This document shows positions 10,554 to 37,878 of a stretch of DNA of 37,878 nt, one piece after another. Source of the stretch: Thiocapsa sp. (GTDB lineage Bacteria > Pseudomonadota > Gammaproteobacteria > Chromatiales > Chromatiaceae); contig NZ_JAABRP010000027.1 of assembly GCF_011390875.1 (NCBI RefSeq), positions 1 to 37,878 of the forward strand, in the 5' to 3' direction. The notes beneath the pieces were generated by a model. The model was not told the origin of the DNA. It was given only the letters and a program-made list of their open reading frames with translations, and ran no database searches. The translations under genes were made by a program, and so were the position numbers. Every line of letters begins with the position of its first letter. Positions within the stretch are counted from its first letter, which is position 1.

Positions 10554-10638
10554 TAAACCGCGCCGGCTCCAGCAGTCGTGAAATCCGCCGGGGCCGATCC
10601 CACCCAAAAACATTCCATACCGCACTAGGCGCGGTTTA
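10554..10638 (-). repeat. TAAACCGCG-ended palindromic element, GCC type (single unit)
   Basis: 85 bp bounded by TAAACCGCGCC and GGCGCGGTTTA. The interior shares long blocks with the unit at 19762-19846: GGCTCCAGCAG near the left end and CCGGGGCCGATCCCA in the middle. By the end that carries the conserved GTGCGGTATG block, it is oriented leftward. It lies 79 bp past the octaheme cytochrome stop. Confidence 0.85.
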
Positions 10639-12669: not shown

Positions 12670-13188
12670 ATGCGAAGATCCACTTGGAGCCGCGCCATGT
12701 GCGTCGGGTTCCTGATCGGGACGTTCCCGAGCCTGCCGCTCCATGCCGAGGAGGTCCGCTCCGAGAGCATGCTCGCCAACACCTGCGCCGGCTGTCACGG
12801 CACGCTCGGCGCGAGCGCCGGGGAGGTGATGCCGATCATCGGCGGGATGGACAAGGGCTATCTCGTCGAGGTGCTCACCGACTACAAGACCGGTCGGCGA
12901 CCATCGACCATCATGGGTCGCATCATGCAGGGCTACGGCGATGTCGTCGCCGCGATCAACGGCGAAGCCGCACCCGCGCCATCCTACGTCAACACCTGCT
13001 ACAGCATCATCGCCCCCGAGCACGGCATCTCGGTCGCGGGTGTCTATCGGCTCGAAGACGGGCGGATCGTGGACATTCCCGGCGCGGGCGGGGTCTCGCC
13101 GGCCGACGCGGATGCCCGAACGCGCACGCTCGAGCAACAGTTCGCGCTGGACTGGTTCCGCAACATCACCTCGGATATGTTCACCTAA
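12670..13188 (+). CDS. Monoheme cytochrome c, FccA-like heme domain with unknown C-terminal extension
   Basis: 172 aa. Signal peptide (cleavage after LPLHA, about 26). The heme site is CAGCH at 39-43 in MLANTCAGCHGTLGASAG, followed by MDKGYLVEVLTDYKTGRRPSTIMGRIMQGY, with the probable methionine ligand in STIMGRIM. This matches the N-terminal heme domain of flavocytochrome c sulfide dehydrogenase subunit FccA and cytochrome c4. Unlike FccA there is no second CxxCH; residues about 95-172 (SYVNTCYSIIAPEHGISV through VDIPGAGG) are unrecognised. ATG 12670 has AAAGGAG upstream. Divergent from the octaheme cytochrome, and so a likely electron partner (inference). Its TAA stop is the first triplet of a TAAACCGCG element. 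Confidence 0.85.
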   Translation: MRRSTWSRAMCVGFLIGTFPSLPLHAEEVRSESMLANTCAGCHGTLGASAGEVMPIIGGMDKGYLVEVLTDYKTGRRPSTIMGRIMQGYGDVVAAINGEAAPAPSYVNTCYSIIAPEHGISVAGVYRLEDGRIVDIPGAGGVSPADADARTRTLEQQFALDWFRNITSDMFT

Positions 13189-13230
13189 ACCGCGCCAACA
13201 AACGACGCATTCCGCACCGGGCGCGGTTTA
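13186..13230 (-). repeat. Short TAAACCGCG-ended element (45-bp deletion form)
   Basis: Ends TAAACCGCGCC and GGCGCGGTTTA. Its right half (ACGACGCATTCCGCACCGG) matches the complement of the head of the unit at 13892, but the internal hairpin of about 40 bp is missing, so it looks like an internal-deletion derivative. It begins on the stop codon of the preceding cytochrome gene. Confidence 0.8.
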
Positions 13231-13891: not shown

Positions 13892-14084
13892 TAAACCGCG
13901 CCCGGTGCGGTATGCGTCGTTCGTTTGATTGGCTTGGCCGCGCCGGCTCCGACAACTGTCGGAGCCGGCGCGGTTTAGAGTATTAAAAAAATAAAATCTT
14001 AAACCGCGTCTCCACCGAGGCCGGTGAACTCCCTAAGGCCGAATACAACATGAAACGGACGCATGTCGCTCTGGACGCGGTTTA
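13892..14084. repeat. Composite inverted doublet of TAAACCGCG elements (GCC unit, AT linker, GTC unit)
   Basis: GCC-type unit 13892-13977 (86 bp, TAAACCGCGCC to GGCGCGGTTTA, with an internal perfect GGCTCCGACA-type hairpin at its right end). Then a 22-bp linker 13978-13999 made almost only of A and T, with TATTAAAAAA. Then GTC-type unit 14000-14084 (85 bp, TAAACCGCGTC to GACGCGGTTTA). The conserved heads face outward: TAAACCGCGCCCGGTGCGG on the left, and TAAACCGCGTCCAGAGCGA read from the right. The architecture is repeated at 19655-19846 in the opposite orientation. It fills the gap between two convergent genes, and its right end is the stop codon of the leftward gene. Confidence 0.88.
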
Positions 14085-14417
14085 ATGCGTGCCGAGGCGA
14101 CGCGTTTGGACGAGATCGCCGCGGTAATCGACAAAGTCCATCATGTGCGCCCCGAGACGCGCGGCATAGTCCTGCGGTGACGGCGTATTGTGCGGGTCGA
14201 TCTGGCGGTCGTGGGCCAGATCCGGCTCGACCATCTCCACGGTGACATAGGCAAGCAGTCCCTCGGCGATCAGATTGGCGGCCTCGCACTGCCACTGAGG
14301 GCGCTCCCGGTCCAAGAGCGCCTGTTGATCCTCCCCGAGGGTACCGGCGCGCAACGCCGTCCAGCTGTCGATCAGGAGTCGGATCAGGTCGTCTTCGCTG
14401 GGTTCAAGGTCGCTCAT
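14082..14417 (-). CDS. Conserved-looking hypothetical cytoplasmic protein, 111 aa
   Basis: Unrecognised. Starts MSDLEPSEDDLIRLLIDSWTAL, is acidic and helical, and has no signal peptide or membrane segment. Tryptophan/glutamine-rich middle (RPQWQCEAANLIAEGLLAYV) and a C-terminus HMMDFVDYRGDLVQTRRLG. ATG 14417 has GGAG 4-5 bp upstream, and codon usage is GC-rich like its neighbours, which supports a real gene. The TAA stop (14084-14082) is the outer triplet of the GTC-type repeat unit. The membrane protein gene upstream on the same strand is 128 bp away, across a strong hairpin. Confidence 0.7.
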   Translation of the reverse strand: MSDLEPSEDDLIRLLIDSWTALRAGTLGEDQQALLDRERPQWQCEAANLIAEGLLAYVTVEMVEPDLAHDRQIDPHNTPSPQDYAARLGAHMMDFVDYRGDLVQTRRLGTH

Positions 14418-14447
14418 CGGGCTCCGGGGGTGCTGTTCGGGGCTTCC

Positions 14448-14509
14448 CGCCTGTCGCTCGGATTCGCAGAGCGGTTGGAAGCGGCCGCTTCGGTGTCGAG
14501 CGACAGGCG
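14448..14509. repeat. 13-bp inverted repeat enclosing a 14-bp palindrome
   Basis: CGCCTGTCGCTCG (14448-14460) and its exact complement (14497-14509). The 36-nt loop contains the perfect palindrome GAAGCGGCCGCTTC (14478-14491). It lies between two leftward genes and could end or process the transcript of the upstream membrane-protein gene. Confidence 0.6.
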
Positions 14510-14545
14510 AGTCGCTCGTTATAAAGAAACGATCTCCAACGCTCG

Positions 14546-15022
14546 TCACGCTCCCGCACCGATCATGGCCGGTCCCGCGGCGGCGATGACGACCGTCGCC
14601 AAGCCAAGGCCCAGATTCACGGCCATCAAGCCGCGGATCCAGCCGAAGGCCGACGCGGCCTTCGGCCATTCGGCCGTGGCAACGCTGCCCTGCATCCGGC
14701 GGAACGGGATGAAATAGATCACGGCAAAGATCAGCGTCATGATCAGGGCGATGCCCATCATGGCGTGGACATAGACACCGGCCTTGGCGCCCATGACCCC
14801 GAGAAACACCCAAAGCCCGCTCAACCACAGAACCGCAATCGAGCCCCAGACCCAGGGGAAGAAGCGCTGAAAGACGCCGAGTGCAACCCGCAGGCGGGGT
14901 TGCGGATCCAGCGTCTCTTTGAGCGTCGGACGCAGCGCAAAATGGGCGAAAAACATCCCGCCGACCCAGACGAGGCCGGCGGCTTGATGCAGAGCGATGG
15001 GGATGGCGATTTCGAGATTCAT
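14546..15022 (-). CDS. CopD-like four-helix membrane protein
   Basis: 158 aa, four predicted transmembrane helices: IALHQAAGLVWVGGMFFAHF, VWGSIAVLWLSGLWVFLGV, VYVHAMMGIALIMTLIFAVI and GLMAVNLGLGLATVVIAAAG. The HQ...WVGGMFFAHF start with histidines in helices 1 and 3 is like CopD/YebZ-type and related heme- or copper-linked membrane proteins. I chose ATG 15022; a TTG 21 bp upstream is possible but less likely. Function is not established; a role in copper or heme-linked redox is a family-level guess. No partner CopC lies nearby. Confidence 0.75.
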   Translation of the reverse strand: MNLEIAIPIALHQAAGLVWVGGMFFAHFALRPTLKETLDPQPRLRVALGVFQRFFPWVWGSIAVLWLSGLWVFLGVMGAKAGVYVHAMMGIALIMTLIFAVIYFIPFRRMQGSVATAEWPKAASAFGWIRGLMAVNLGLGLATVVIAAAGPAMIGAGA

Positions 15023-15166
15023 GGTCGGTATCCTCGTGGTCAAGCTGTCTGGTCGTCATTGATGCCGGGCACACGACAGAGGCGTCACGTATCCGCAGCG
15101 GGGTCAGGCAATCGATCGAAACAAGTCGGCGACGGACGGTGGAGCAGAAACGCCCGACCTTCGGGG

Positions 15167-15853
15167 TCAATCTCCTGCGGCATCGGGGTCTATTAAAACA
15201 TCCGTTTTGCCCAGTGCGGCGACCCGCGCGACCGGCAGATCCGCACCGCGACGCCACGCCGCAAGTGCCTCGCGTTTGCCTGCGCCCGTCACCAGGATCA
15301 AACGCTCGGGAGCAGCCGCCAGGGACAATGGGGTCAGGGTTACTCGATCCGGCGGCGGTTTCGGGGCCTCGTGCACGGGTGCCGCGCGCACGCCGGTCGG
15401 GGTCGCATGACCGGGGAAAAGACTTGCGGTGTGGCCGTCCTCGCCCATGCCCAGCAGGATCAAATCGAAGGGGAGCAGATCGGCGATCAGCGCGTCGTAG
15501 CGGACCGCCGCGGACTCTGCCCCCGACTCCGCGGGAATCCAGTGCAGATTATCCGACGGGATGGCAACGCGCTCCGTCAGGGCCAATGCGATCGCGCGAC
15601 TGTTGCGCTCCGGGTCATCGGGCGGAAGACAGCGCTCGTCGCCGAGAAAGAGATGCCAACGCGCCCACTCCTCGGGCCGATGGACCAAGCGGTCATAAGC
15701 GGCCAAGGGGGTGCGCCCGCCGGCCAAGACACACAGAAATCGCCCGCGCGCTTCGATTGCACGGCGCGCCGCCGCGCTCATTCGGCGCGCCGTTTCCTCG
15801 GCCACCGCATCCGCCGATTCGAGACGAATGAAGTGGATCATTTGCTCGCCCAT
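15167..15853 (-). CDS. pgl: 6-phosphogluconolactonase
   Basis: 228 aa, DevB/SOL family (same fold as glucosamine-6-phosphate deaminase). It hydrolyses 6-phosphogluconolactone to 6-phosphogluconate in the oxidative pentose phosphate pathway, in the cytoplasm. Motifs: VLAGGRTPLAAY (substrate phosphate loop), WHLFLGDERCLPPDDPERN, and LILLGMGEDGHTASLFPG, the family signature. Length is typical (about 230 aa). ATG 15853 is chosen; an internal ATG at 15841 is also possible. Divergent from a response-regulator gene across 72 bp. zwf and gnd are not in the window. Confidence 0.93.
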   Translation of the reverse strand: MGEQMIHFIRLESADAVAEETARRMSAAARRAIEARGRFLCVLAGGRTPLAAYDRLVHRPEEWARWHLFLGDERCLPPDDPERNSRAIALALTERVAIPSDNLHWIPAESGAESAAVRYDALIADLLPFDLILLGMGEDGHTASLFPGHATPTGVRAAPVHEAPKPPPDRVTLTPLSLAAAPERLILVTGAGKREALAAWRRGADLPVARVAALGKTDVLIDPDAAGD

Positions 15854-15925
15854 GGCACTTTGCCCCCTCCGACCAGTAAACTGACGGCGTTTTCACTCCC
15901 GACCGATACCGCCCGTTACGACCCT

Positions 15926-16885
15926 ATGAAAATCCTCCTGATCGACGACTCCAGAGTCACGCGATACGCCTTGCGCATCGAGCTGAAGAATTGCGGTATC
16001 GATGTCGATACGGCCGACTCCGCGGAGGCGGCCTTGGAGATGCTCAAGAGCCGAGTTCCGGACGCGATCTTCATGGATCATATCATGCCGGGTTTGAACG
16101 GCTTGGAGGCTTTGGAGATCATCCGCGCAGACCCGCACACGGCCCATGTGCCGATCGTGCTCTGCACCTCGCAGGAGGACAGCGACTTCGCCGCAGCGGC
16201 GCAAAGGAGGGGCGTCCTCACCGTTCTGCCCAAATCACTCGCCGCCGAGCGGCTCCCCGAGGTTCTCGAGTGCGTGCGCGCAGCGATCCAGAGCGACACG
16301 CCGGCCCCGCTCGCTCGGGTCCCGCAGGCCGCCCAATCCGTCGCCGCCGCGCCGTCCCTGCCCGTACCGCCGAGCGAGGCCGAGCTGATCGCATTGATCG
16401 ACGAACGCCTGGAGGCCGGCATCAACCGGCGCTTGACGATCCTCGTCGAATCGCTGCGGCGCGACCTGACCGAGATCCTGATCGCGGAGGCACGCCACCT
16501 CGTCGAGGAGCGACTCGCCGAGGAGCGCGCCGCGAGAGCTGCCGCACCGCCATCTGCATGCCAGCAGGATCTTCGTGATCTCGAGGTGCGTCTGATCGGC
16601 GAGATCCTTCCTGAACTGATCGGAGAACACGTCGCCGCATCACTCTCACGGCAGCGCCCCGAGATCGTCGAAGAGTTGAGGCAATCGCTCCCTGCCGCGA
16701 CGCGACAACCGGCAGCAGCGAGCGACGGGGCCGAGTCCGGCGAGCATGCGCCTGCGCGGCCGCAAGCCGGGTGGCGCCGCAACGCCTCCGACATAGATGT
16801 CGCGGAGGCAGCGAACCGTCTGCGCGACATGGCCACAACAGCCCTTCAATCGCTTCGCGCGGCCATCAAACGTGACGACCGCTGA
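15926..16885 (+). CDS. Response-regulator receiver protein with long helical C-terminal region
   Basis: 319 aa. Residues 1-120 form a CheY-like receiver: ILLIDDSRVTR (acidic pair), the phosphoacceptor aspartate in DAIFMDHIMPGLNG, the CTSQ threonine position, and a lysine in VLPKSL. After an Ala/Pro-rich linker, residues about 155-290 have repeated amphipathic helices (ELIALIDERLEAGINRRL, LRRDLTEILIAEARHLVEER, EILPELIGEHVAASL). The tail has a helix near SDIDVAEAANRLRDMA. There is no known DNA-binding or enzymatic output. Such tails occur in some twitching or polarity regulators, but I cannot assign one. ATG 15926 has no strong ribosome binding site. Confidence 0.85.
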   Translation: MKILLIDDSRVTRYALRIELKNCGIDVDTADSAEAALEMLKSRVPDAIFMDHIMPGLNGLEALEIIRADPHTAHVPIVLCTSQEDSDFAAAAQRRGVLTVLPKSLAAERLPEVLECVRAAIQSDTPAPLARVPQAAQSVAAAPSLPVPPSEAELIALIDERLEAGINRRLTILVESLRRDLTEILIAEARHLVEERLAEERAARAAAPPSACQQDLRDLEVRLIGEILPELIGEHVAASLSRQRPEIVEELRQSLPAATRQPAAASDGAESGEHAPARPQAGWRRNASDIDVAEAANRLRDMATTALQSLRAAIKRDDR

Positions 16886-16923
16886 GTCTGTCCTCCTCGA
16901 CTTGCGCCGCCCCGACCGATGGG

Positions 16924-17088
16924 TCAGCTGGGCGGTTCCTCGTCGTCGTCTCGTTTGCCTGTGCTCGAAGGGTCATTGTCCATTCGATTCCGATCGCGTC
17001 GCGAGGCGATGAATTGGGAATAGACCAGCCAGGCGGCGAGTGCCATGAAGCCGTAAAATTCGATCGCTTTCAGTGCATTTCCGTCCAT
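16924..17088 (-). CDS. Small single-pass membrane protein, 54 aa
   Basis: [20 protein letters not shown] starts a single membrane helix (about residues 10-30), followed by a charged tail ([15 protein letters not shown], then DDDEEPPS). ATG 17088 has GGGGGA 6 bp upstream, better than the ATG at 17106. N-out/C-in topology is suggested by the RR pair after the helix. It sits convergent to the receiver protein and divergent from phosphoketolase; function unknown. Confidence 0.6.
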
Positions 17089-17260
17089 TCGATGTCCCCC
17101 GATCAAGGTGGCGCAGGTTCAAGGCCGCAGGGACCGGCCCGCTGCAAGCCCATTGTTCACCGTCACACGAGCGCTTCCCGCGACCGCTCCCCGTCACCTC
17201 GCGTTCATCCGAGTCATTTACTATGCTGAAACGATCGCCGACGGACACACCGAGAAGCCC

Positions 17261-19657
17261 ATGACGACACGCAGCCTCTCCACGACCGAGATCGCCGCCA
17301 ATCCTTTGCCCCCCGAGCTTCTGACCAAGATCGACGCCTACTGGCGCGCCTGCAACTACCTCGCCGCGGGCATGATCTATCTGCGGGACAACCCGCTGCT
17401 GCGCGAGCCGCTCGCCGAGAGCCACCTGAAAAAGCGTCTGCTCGGTCATTGGGGCGCGAGTCCTGGCCTGTCCTTCATGTATGTCCACCTCAACCGCATC
17501 ATCCGGGAGCATGCACGGGAGGCGATCTTTCTCGCCGGTCCGGGCCACGGTGCGCCGGGCGTGCTCGCCCCAGTGTATTTGGAGGGCACCTACTCCGAGA
17601 TCTACCCCAACAAGAGCGAGGATGAAGAAGGCATGCGCGCCTTCTTCAAACAGTTCTCCTTCCCGGGCGGCATCGGCTCGCATTGCACGCCGGAGACGCC
17701 GGGCTCCATCCACGAAGGCGGCGAGCTGGGTTACTCGATCTCGCATGCCTTCGGTGCCGCCTTCGACAACCCGGACCTTTTGGTCGCCGTGGCGGTCGGC
17801 GACGGCGAGGCCGAGACCGGCCCACTTGCGACCTCCTGGCATTCGAGCAAGTTCCTCAATCCCATCCGCGACGGTGCGGTGCTGCCGATCCTCCATCTGA
17901 ACGGCTACAAAATCAACAACCCGACCCTGCTCGCACGCATACCGCGCGAGGAGCTCGCCGAGCTGATGCGCGGCTACGGATGGTCGCCGTACTTCGTCGA
18001 GGGCGACGACCCGATGACGATGCATCAAACCATGGCGGCCACCCTGGATGCCTGTCTCGCGCGGATCCGCGCCTTTCAGCAGGAGGCCCGCACGAACGGC
18101 ACGGCGACGCGCTGCCATTGGCCGATGATCGTGCTGCGCTCGCCGAAGGGCTGGACCGGACCCGCGGAGGTCGACGGGAAGAAGGTCGAGGGCTTCTGGC
18201 GCGCCCATCAGGTGCCCTTGTCCGGCATGCACGACAACCCGGCCCATCTCGAACAGCTCGAAGACTGGCTGCGCAGCTACAAGCCCGAAGAGCTGTTCGA
18301 CGGCGCGGGCAGGCTGATCCCGGAGCTGCGCGCGCTTGCCCCGGAGGGGACGCTGCGCATGAGTGCCAATCCGCACGCGAACGGCGGTCTGTTGCGTCGC
18401 GCCCTTCGCATGCCGGACTTCCGCGACTATGCCCTTCACGTCGCCGCGCCGGGGAAGATCCGCGCCATGAACACCAAGCCGACGGGCGAGCTGCTGCGCG
18501 ACGTCATGGCCAAGAACATGGACAACTTCCGAGTCTTCGGCCCGGACGAGAACACCTCGAACAAGCTCGACGCCATCTACGAGGTCTCGAAAAAGCTCTG
18601 GCTCTGCGACTACAAACCCGAGGACGCCGACGGCGGCGAGCTATCGCCGGACGGGCGCGTGCTCGAGATGCTCTCCGAGCACACCTTGGAGGGCTGGTAC
18701 GAGGGCTATGTCCTGACCGGTCGGCACGGCTTCTTTGCGACCTATGAAGCCTTCGTCCATGTCATCGACAGCATGTACAACCAGCACGCCAAATGGCTGG
18801 CGATTTGCGAGGAGATCCCCTGGCGGGCGCGCATCTCCTCTCTGAACCTCTTGATCACCTCGACCGTCTGGCGCCAGGACCACAACGGCTTCACCCATCA
18901 GGATCCAGGCTTTCTGGATGTCGTGGTCAACAAGAATCCGGAGGTCACGCGCATCTATCTGCCGCCGGACGTGAACACCCTGCTCTCCACGGTCGACCAT
19001 TGCCTGCAGAGCCGCGACGACATCAACGTGATCGTGGCCGACAAGCAGAACCATCTTCAGTACCTGGACATGGACGCCGCCATCAAGCACTGCACAAAGG
19101 GTATCGGCATCTGGGATTGGGCGAGCAACGACCAGGGTGTCGAGCCCGACGCGGTGATGGTCGGCTGCGGAGACATCCCGACCAAGGAGGCACTGGCCGC
19201 CACCGCACTGCTGCGCGAGCACTTCCCCGACATCCGGCTGCGCTTCATCAATGTCGTGGATCTTTTCAAGATGCAGCCCGCGGGTGAGCATCCGCACGGA
19301 CTGAGCGATCATGACTTCGACAGCCTCTTCACCAAAGACCGGCCGGTGATCTTCAACTTCCACGGCTATCCCTGGTTGATTCATCGCCTCGCCTATCGCC
19401 GCACCAATCACAAGAACCTGCACGTGCGCGGCTACAAGGAAAAGGGCAATATCAACACGCCGCTGGAGCTCGCCATCGAGAACGAGATCGACCGCTTCAG
19501 CCTGGCCATCGACGTGATCAATCGGGTCCCGCGCCTGCAGGTCGCGGGTGCGCATGTGAAGGAAAAGTTGCGCGACATGCAGATCGACTGCAGAAACTAC
19601 GCGCACGAGCATGGAATCGACAAGCCCGATGTCGATGAGTGGATCTGGCCCTTTTAA
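17261..19657 (+). CDS. xfp: Xylulose-5-phosphate/fructose-6-phosphate phosphoketolase
   Basis: 798 aa, full family length. Thiamine-diphosphate enzyme that splits xylulose-5-P (or fructose-6-P) with phosphate to acetyl-phosphate plus glyceraldehyde-3-P (or erythrose-4-P). Family signatures: [35 protein letters not shown] with the active-site histidine, EGTYSEIYP, the ThDP/Mg site [19 protein letters not shown], and [10 protein letters not shown] near the C-terminal domain. Start ATG 17261 ([11 protein letters not shown]) is preceded by a weak GAGAAG; upstream in-frame sequence lacks homology. Acetate kinase or phosphotransacetylase is not in view. Glycogen phosphorylase follows after 224 bp holding a repeat doublet. 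The TAA stop is supplied by that doublet's first triplet. Confidence 0.95.
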
Positions 19658-19846
19658 ACCGCGTCCAGAGCGAGATGCTTATTTTCGAGTGAAATCGAGA
19701 TGTGGTGCATCCACGGCCCTTATCGGGGACGCGGTTTAAAATAATATATTTTTTAATATCTTAAACCGTGCCGGCTCCAGCAGACTTCAAGCCTGCCGGG
19801 GCCGATCCCATCAAAAAACATCGCATGCAGCGCCGGGCGCGGTTTA
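19655..19846. repeat. Composite inverted doublet of TAAACCGCG elements (GTC unit, AT linker, GCC unit)
   Basis: GTC-type unit 19655-19738 (84 bp), a 23-bp AT-only linker 19739-19761 apart from one C, and GCC-type unit 19762-19846 (85 bp). It is the reverse orientation of the doublet at 13892-14084: the complement reads GCC unit, linker with TATTAAAAAA, GTC unit. The GTC head TAAACCGCGTCCAGAGCGA is identical in both copies. One outer base differs from consensus (TAAACCGTG at 19762). The first triplet is the stop codon of phosphoketolase; the other end is 35 bp before the glycogen phosphorylase start. Confidence 0.88.
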
Positions 19847-37804: not shown

Positions 37805-37878
37805 TAAACCGCGCCCGGTGCGATATGCGTCATGTGTTGGAATGGCTTGGCCGCGCCAGCCCCGACGACTGTCGGAGC
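37805..37878 (+). repeat. TAAACCGCG element, GCC type, cut by window end
   Basis: Begins TAAACCGCGCCCGGTGCG and continues with ATATGCGTCATG and GGCTTGGCCGCGCCAG, matching the unit at 13892 closely, and stops in the terminal hairpin at the window edge. Seventh unit of the family. It lies 110 bp upstream of the antiporter start. Confidence 0.85.

What the first reader, a model, noticed from the sequence alone, without database searches (positions are those of the whole stretch)
13892..19846. Two copies of a composite 192/193-bp inverted doublet built from TAAACCGCG elements
Each doublet is a GCC-type unit and a GTC-type unit facing away from each other, joined by an AT-rich linker of 22-23 bp that shares TATTAAAAAA. 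Copies are 13892-14084 and 19655-19846, in opposite orientation, with nearly equal total length (193 and 192 bp). Unit lengths are 84-86 bp. Conserved heads (TAAACCGCGYCC, then GCG and ATGCG) lie at both outer ends. This is REPIN/MITE-like, but units are longer than classical REPs and have a fixed AT linker. I know of no named family with this layout.
Basis: seen in the sequence. Interest (0 to 1): 0.8.

Follow-up and report, generated by a model that had tools for sequence, protein, structure and literature searches.

The report
Two-hairpin mobile repeats that donate stop codons
These are two of several hundred copies of a small non-coding jumping element in purple sulfur bacteria of the genus Thiocapsa; it lands at a four-letter target, very often exactly in a gene's stop codon, which it then replaces with its own, and old copies keep their hairpin ends paired while the rest drifts.

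Summary
Both doublets are real, and the genome holds 342 exact arm pairs (0 in the reversed control); seven other Thiocapsa genomes hold 117-589 each.

The doublet behaves as a MITE. It sits at YTAR (234 of 248 sites). Clean empty orthologous sites keep two bases: TA at three sites, TG or CA at three. Units lie heads-out (66 of 67 oriented), and each of 76 fully classified pairs is one B plus one A unit with a polar AT linker.

The B head resembles the right end of IS630-family elements of two related genomes (23-24 of 31 positions; shuffle maximum 17). No close relative of that transposase was found intact in the repeat-rich genomes.

At 54 of 116 neighbouring gene 3' ends the element's first codon is the gene's stop. 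Some single units face a doublet at the same site in another species. The ten outer bases of a unit pair and covary, without an RNA-strand signature.

Verdict: an IS630-type MITE of unusual two-unit, modular build; not a REPIN.

The parts
13892..13977 (+). unit A1 (GCC type, 86 bp) of doublet 1, head at the left
   Evidence: 75.4 bits with model R1, which was built with this unit among its 67
13978..13999 (.). AT-rich linker of doublet 1 (22 bp)
14000..14084 (-). unit B3 (GTC type, 85 bp) of doublet 1, head at the right
19655..19738 (+). unit B2 (84 bp) of doublet 2; its first codon TAA (19655-19657) is the stop codon of the phosphoketolase gene called at 17108-19657
19739..19761 (.). AT-rich linker of doublet 2 (23 bp)
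19762..19846 (-). unit A2 (85 bp) of doublet 2, head at the right
10554..10638 (-). solo unit (A2-like)
13186..13230 (-). 45-bp remnant of an A1-like unit; at this site G004 carries a full B1-A1 doublet and G002 a B1 unit with a decayed A unit
37805..37878 (+). A1-like unit cut off by the end of the contig

Best explanation
The doublet is the full-length form of a non-autonomous transposable element (MITE) of the IS630/Tc1-mariner type. It consists of a B unit (its head resembles the right end of an IS630-family element), a polar AT linker of about 23 bp and an A unit, with both heads outward. An IS630-type transposase acting in trans, not found intact in the repeat-rich genomes, inserted it at YTAR and duplicated TA. 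Because the element starts with TAA on both strands, landing in an in-frame TAA or TAG stop is harmless, and very many copies sit exactly there. After insertion, deletion between the repeated 10-bp arms can remove one unit and the linker and leave a solo 85-bp unit. Shown here: copy number, target motif, empty sites, heads-out B+A grammar, similarity of the B head to IS ends, stop-codon overlap, doublet, solo and empty states at one site, pairing and covariation of the arms. Inferred: mobilisation by such a transposase, A as the other IS end, deletion as the source of solos. Not resolved: whether the hairpin is kept by selection or by arm-to-arm correction.
For: 342 exact arm pairs in the genome, 0 reversed; 10 of 56 genomes by exact pattern, 17 of 56 by covariance model. 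YTA..TAR at 234 of 248 sites against 2,790 of 24,594 TA dinucleotides of the same DNA. Empty sites with two bases left, for example CC[TA]G in G002, G007 and G008 opposite L284 10611-10803. Heads-out in 66 of 67 confidently oriented doublets, of 88; B+A in 76 of 76 doublets with both units classified, of 108. The IS630 transposase (NF033545, E 2.5e-45) of G006 lies between ends that match the heads; G014 has related ends. Stop codon equals the element's first codon at 54 of 116 gene 3' ends, and at 36 of 43 plus 15 of 20 ends into which an ORF runs. Doublet, solo and footprint at one site in different species (site 7); doublet, solo and empty at another.
Against: The window's genome has no DDE_3 (PF13358) hit, though it is 91.5% complete, and a transposase at least 60% identical to the one with matching ends was found only in G006 (itself) and G014, genomes with 0 exact units. 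A heads match the IS ends only weakly (best 18 of 31, against the right end). At three of six clean empty sites the two bases are TG or CA, not TA, and a seventh, less clean one reads TG. In G001 the A2 unit is identical in all 20 loci read while the B partners differ, which whole-doublet transposition alone does not explain (loci chosen for equal score). Free-energy folding of the two window doublets pairs head with head and tail with tail, wholly or in part, rather than simply unit by unit.
Confidence: 0.8

Rival explanations
1. REPIN/REP system: two inverted palindromes moved as single-stranded DNA by a RAYT (Y1) transposase.
For: Inverted pair of palindromes with linker; Y1_Tnp proteins occur in all 11 genus genomes searched.
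Against: 20 RAYT-type loci read: 10 of 20 hold units, none within about 1.3 kb of the Y1_Tnp match, and 8 of these 10 are one conserved place. Y1_Tnp is also present in G005, G006 and G009, which have 0 exact units. Target YTAR and IS630-like ends point to a DDE enzyme.
Confidence: 0.05
2. Each 85-bp unit is itself the mobile thing (its two 10-bp arms serve as ends), and doublets are pairs of units that landed in register.
For: Single units outnumber doublets (36 against 17 clusters in the first own sample); identical A2 units occur alone and beside different B units in G001; a solo in G000 faces two empty sites (L051 8811).
Against: Linker of 22-24 bp in 72 of 88 doublets, heads-out in 66 of 67, B+A in 76 of 76. 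23 of 115 classified solos have a linker-like AT stretch at the tail and 0 at the head, so part of the solos are doublets with a decayed partner. Solos and doublets share sites: 20 doublet-to-solo and 18 solo-to-doublet directional pairs of 326. G003 has a doublet, and G000 a unit with linker and the start of a partner, where G001 has a solo.
Confidence: 0.15
3. The units are primarily structured RNA elements (intercistronic or 3'-end hairpins, as proposed for NEMIS and ERIC) kept by selection after insertion.
For: Arms more conserved than interiors in 15 of 18 evaluated units at shared sites; 6 of 40 variable arm pairs have more than one Watson-Crick type against 5 of 250 slid pairs; 98.6% of cells pair in 67 diverse units, 0 of 500 shuffles reach it.
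Against: On the transcribed strand G-U and A-C departures are about equal (27 against 21, p 0.47; 5 against 4 in tandem contexts), so no RNA-strand signature. Reference units were found by their arms, which favours conserved arms. Terminator-like sites are not clearly in excess (9 against 5.9, sd 2.3). Folding of whole doublets prefers head-to-head pairing.
Confidence: 0.3
4. Arm matching is not selected but made by template switching between the arms (quasipalindrome correction) or by gene conversion among copies.
For: No strand bias; identical A2 copies in G001; different modules at one site in different species.
Against: Pairing stops sharply after position 10: at position 11, 0 of 19 head changes are matched and 0 of 67 units show a matched double change.
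Confidence: 0.3

Closest known systems
RUP (repeat unit of pneumococcus), an IS630-type MITE
   Same: Short non-coding element, inverted ends like an IS630-family element, TA target, 108-110 copies (PMC2229807 parts 1-2; PMC3049150 passages)
   Different: RUP is one simple 107-bp AT-rich repeat; here two GC-richer units with an AT linker, A and B module families, a YTAR target and many stop-codon insertions
ERIC / Correia-NEMIS
   Same: TA at both ends, palindromic, mostly between genes, predicted RNA hairpin (PMC2229807)
   Different: 127 bp, or 107 and 155 bp, with one stem-loop from 5'-3' end pairing; no sequence comparison with them was made here
CIR repeat of Caulobacter and relatives
   Same: Described as two stem-loops joined by a linker (PMC2229807)
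   Different: About 110 bp and carries GANTC; here GANTC is not enriched (37 in 76 doublets, shuffled mean 55.5)
REPIN / REP with RAYT
   Same: Inverted pair of palindromes with polarity (recalled)
   Different: No RAYT association found, 85-bp units, YTAR target

Membership tests
IS630-type MITE | inserts at TA with 2-bp duplication | tested here: met
   Two bases in clean empty sites: TA at three sites; exceptions TG or CA at three and TG at one less clean site; YTA..TAR 234 of 248
IS630-type MITE | ends homologous to an IS630-family element | tested here: met
   B1/B3 heads agree with the right ends at 23-24 of 31 positions beyond the first 9 (best of 2,000 shuffles of one end: 17); A heads best 18, so the A end is not settled; transposase NF033545
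IS630-type MITE | moved by that transposase | not testable with these tools
   No assay; no close intact relative in repeat-rich genomes
IS630-type MITE | short, without transposase gene, high copy number | tested here: met
   85 and 193 bp; 342 exact arm pairs
REPIN/REP-RAYT | RAYT gene flanked by the repeat | tested here: not met
   20 loci, no unit within about 1.3 kb of the Y1_Tnp match
REPIN/REP-RAYT | 20-40 bp palindrome with GTAG or CGTC at one end (PMC3733652, listing and passages) | tested here: not met
   Units 84-86 bp, ends TAAACCGCG
CIR | GANTC motif, about 110 bp | tested here: not met
   GANTC below shuffled level; 192-193 bp
CIR | two stem-loops joined by a linker | tested here: inconclusive
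   Covariation supports one stem per unit, but free-energy folding of whole doublets pairs head with head
ERIC | 127-bp single element | tested here: not met
   192-193 bp in two units; TA ends are shared
Rfam families | match at gathering score in the window | tested here: not met
   Only a cobalamin riboswitch elsewhere in the window

The most novel reading that the evidence does not exclude
Thiocapsa elements form a modular population of mobile hairpins that overwrite one another in place: a fixed genomic socket, often a stop codon, is kept for long times while its A and B modules are exchanged or homogenised between loci (identical A2 beside different B units in G001; B2-A2, B2-A1 and A1-B1 at one site in three species), and the hairpin itself is maintained by compensatory change as a functional gene-end part.
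Probability: 0.2. Interest if true: 0.8.

Novelty: new variant of a known kind. Interest (0 to 1): 0.58.

Why it matters
A mobile element that supplies 53 of the 126 TAA stop codons called in the sampled 665 kb (the stretches were chosen because they carry elements) shows how a genome can absorb hundreds of insertions with little damage. The long-kept sites with paired changes in the arms make it testable whether MITE hairpins are exapted as gene ends or only corrected by their own symmetry. The strict B+A rule together with a candidate IS630 relative gives a defined substrate for a transposition assay.

Tried and rejected
RAYT as mobiliser: 20 loci read, no flanking units. Autonomous element with the same heads in repeat-rich genomes: of 30 IS630-type loci, arm matches (at most 1 mismatch) bracket the DDE_3 match in L221 (G006) and L225 (G007); in L225 the DDE_3 match is partial and the sequence shows no head at the right arm match. 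Among outward head pairs only L221/L242, the same G006 element, holds a transposase as far as looked at; of the other five pairs only L293 was looked at and holds ordinary genes between cut units. RNA-strand test: no bias; a tally by eye over four tandem sites (11 against 2) had looked biased, the larger test did not bear it out. On the contig strand itself counts 32 A-C against 6 G-U cells; the strand there is arbitrary. CIR by GANTC: not enriched. Plasmids: no match to doublet 1. Viral contigs: 4 stretches with unit lengths of 110-111 and head scores of 7-9 of 13, taken as chance. The genome-contig scan used a gap of 70-95 and so missed the main 84-86 bp class; it served to name hosts. 'Solo plus linker as landing socket': of 24 cases read, several show a decayed or truncated partner after the linker and others unrelated sequence. 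Papers: no listed title or abstract start points to this family; most listed papers were not opened. PMC2229807 was read in parts 1 and 2 of 3; PMC10969869, PMC3049150 and PMC3733652 as found passages only. The script ended in an error after printing its rows; the counts used are from the printed rows.
Full report
What was checked. The two doublets are present at the stated coordinates, in opposite orientation, with units of 84-86 bp and linkers of 22 and 23 bp. The window is one contig (C82, 37,878 bases) of a 3.98-Mb genome in 390 contigs. The exact arm pair TAAACCGCG-N(60-90)-CGCGGTTTA occurs 342 times in that genome and 0 times in the reversed control.

Host and spread. By exact pattern (gap 65-95), 10 of 56 genomes carry it: 8 of 11 genomes of the genus (117 to 589 pairs; 338 in the own genome), G028 of the same family (81) and G031 (1); G005, G006 and G009 of the genus have 0. 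With a covariance model from 67 diverse units, 17 of 56 genomes have matches, including G005 (8), G009 (22) and G025 (6); at most 80 candidates per genome were scored, so 80 is a lower bound for the nine richest. The genus is Thiocapsa: contig lengths of G008, G004, G007 and G002 equal those of named records of Thiocapsa sp. KS1, T. marina 5811, Thiocapsa sp. UBA6158 and T. roseopersicina DSM 217. Among the named loci, those of Thiobaca trueperi and Thiocystis minor also hold more than one unit, while most hits outside this family have one single, longer match.

Anatomy. I collected 283 distinct units from fetched stretches of nine genomes: 262 of 283 are 84-86 bp long. Each is read as a head (TAAACCGCGYCC, then GCG and ATGCG where conserved) and a tail. 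Of 88 doublets, 67 could be oriented confidently and 66 of these have both heads outward; the linker is 22-24 bp in 72 of 88. By similarity to five class strings, 76 of 108 doublets have both units classified and every one is A+B; pairs A1-B1 and A2-B2 (27 each) dominate, other combinations make up 22; 32 doublets hold an unclassified unit. Read from B to A, the linkers resemble RAATTTAATATTTTTTAATACTT.

Hairpin. RNAalifold on the 67 diverse units predicts exactly the ten outer pairs and nothing else. For 11 tested pairs, 98.6% of cells pair, 40 cells have changes on both sides (shuffles 8.6 on average, 0 of 500 as high), sliding the partners by 1-3 columns gives 29-43% paired; the number of further pair types is not clearly raised (12 against 10.5, 48 of 500 as high). 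Pairs 2 (A-U, G-C), 5 and 10 vary most; pair 11 shows no matched double change. The units were found by their arms, which inflates pairing. In a set found by the head motif with only weak arm demands (193 units; each arm at least 5 of 9), positions 1-9 show 66 single-arm changes, 13 matched double changes and 2 unmatched ones. At shared sites extracted by their flanks, 6 of 40 variable arm pairs have two Watson-Crick types against 5 of 250 slid pairs, and arms are more conserved than the interior in 15 of 18 evaluated units (a nineteenth had one species only); the reference unit at each site was found by its arms. Clear cases in place: site 5, position 4 (A-T in five species, G-C in three); site 2, position 2 (A-T three, G-C three, G-T one); site 4, position 8 in G008. 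If the stem acted in RNA, G-U should exceed A-C on the transcribed strand; it does not clearly (27 against 21, p 0.47; 5 against 4 in tandem contexts). Against a simple two-hairpin picture, free-energy folding of the window doublets as whole strands pairs head with head, and tail with tail in the second (z -8.2 as DNA; -4.5 as RNA). So the pairing within units is real in evolution, but the level at which it acts, and the fold of a whole doublet, are open.

Insertion. The bases next to the terminal TA are Y and R at 234 of 248 sites; among all TA dinucleotides of the same DNA 2,790 of 24,594 are YTAR. In directional comparisons of orthologous sites doublets face empty sites 18 times and solos 14 times; 98 of 326 comparisons fell in no class. 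Clean empty sites hold two bases between the flanks: TA opposite L051 9481, L284 10611 (G003 and G004 have four bases ending in TA there) and L324 14793; TG opposite window 19655 and L051 8811; CA opposite L351 613. The site L173 9363 looks empty with TG in G007 and G008, but its right flank aligns poorly. One further site shows an 11-nt footprint in G002 (site 7), and one (site 11) is unclear. Whether TG/CA reflects later mutation of TA or a second target is unexplained.

Stop codons. With a simple codon-position gene caller of my own on 665 kb of own DNA (stretches chosen because they hold elements), 116 gene 3' ends neighbour an element; at 54 the stop codon is the element's first codon, and no other distance occurs more than three times. 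Elements supply 53 of 126 TAA stops, 5 of 323 TGA stops and 0 of 97 TAG stops. The caller made at least one visible error (site 4). In the finding itself, doublet 2 supplies the TAA of a phosphoketolase gene ahead of a glycogen phosphorylase gene; species without the element end this gene with TGA. As a codon in frame, TAR is a stop, and the element restores TAA, so a neutral target-plus-tolerance account suffices.

Source. An IS630-family element in G006 (L221 1371-2647) has a transposase (NF033545, E 2.5e-45) between ends that begin TAAACC and match heads: B1 and B3 against the right ends of G006 and G014 agree at 23-24 of 31 positions beyond the first nine, A heads at 18 at best, shuffled maximum 17. 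Matches at 60% identity or more to that transposase are only in G006 and G014; G001 has a 40% remnant beside whose end a doublet sits; other repeat-bearing genomes have more distant IS630 transposases or none. The window's genome has no PF13358 hit. The repeat-rich genomes therefore seem to lack an intact source; it may be lost, unassembled or more diverged.

Life history. Thirty orthologous sites were tabulated. One shows a doublet (G001, G004), a solo B2 (G000, G008, G010 and, by flank extraction, G007) and a footprint (G002). Another shows a doublet in G003, a unit with linker and the start of a partner in G000 (contig end), a solo in G001 and empty in G008 and G010. Such solos are explained by deletion between the direct 10-bp arms 108 bp apart (inference); 89 of 143 directional comparisons of solos only meet another solo and say nothing on this. 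At window 19655 the modules differ between species: B2-A2 here, B2-A1 in G004, A1-B1 in the other orientation in G010, solo A2 in G003 and G007, empty in G002 and G008. In G001, 20 loci chosen for equal model score have an identical 85-bp A2 unit: 7 show only one intact unit of the pair, 5 of them without a linker, and 13 are intact doublets, 9 with B2 partners and the others B1- or B3-like by eye. In stretches not chosen that way, G001 A2 units are 0.86 identical on average, with 14 of 231 pairs at 0.98 or more. Module exchange or conversion is the likely cause; the mechanism is not shown.

Known families. RUP is the nearest by mechanism, CIR by layout, ERIC and Correia by ends (PMC2229807 parts 1-2; PMC3049150 passages). 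The eight paper searches named in Tried and rejected list nothing that points to this family. I rate it a new variant of a known kind. On re-checking, facts were mended (empty sites, folding of whole doublets, decayed partners), none of which moved the odds.

Noticed in passing
window:36313-36535 (-): Cobalamin riboswitch, 110.4 bits.
   Followed up: no
window:37805-37878; L037 end: Contigs end inside or beside units (the window contig C82 ends inside an A1-like unit; C13 ends after a unit, its linker and the next arm), suggesting that these repeats break the assembly.
   Followed up: no
L195, L203, L200, L204, L316, L273, L272, L291 and others: Tandem copies of the element's end motif 9-17 bp apart in 13 candidate cases; perhaps footprints of a second element that inserted at an end and was lost.
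   Followed up: partly
L284:10611-10803: This doublet is 99% identical over 194 bp to a copy in G001 (C1:4381817), while the surrounding DNA of the two genomes is 90-92% identical; recent movement or transfer between species.
   Followed up: no
G031:C225:5963-6046 (L025): One B1-like unit with exact arms in a genome of another genus of the family (2 by covariance model), a possible transfer.
   Followed up: no
window:2052-2103 and 2716-2767: A 52-bp inverted repeat pair, 88% complementary, 612 bp apart, with no arm motif of this family.
   Followed up: no
window 19655; L051 8811; L173 9363; L351 613: Empty sites read TG or CA where occupied ones have TA; unexplained.
   Followed up: partly
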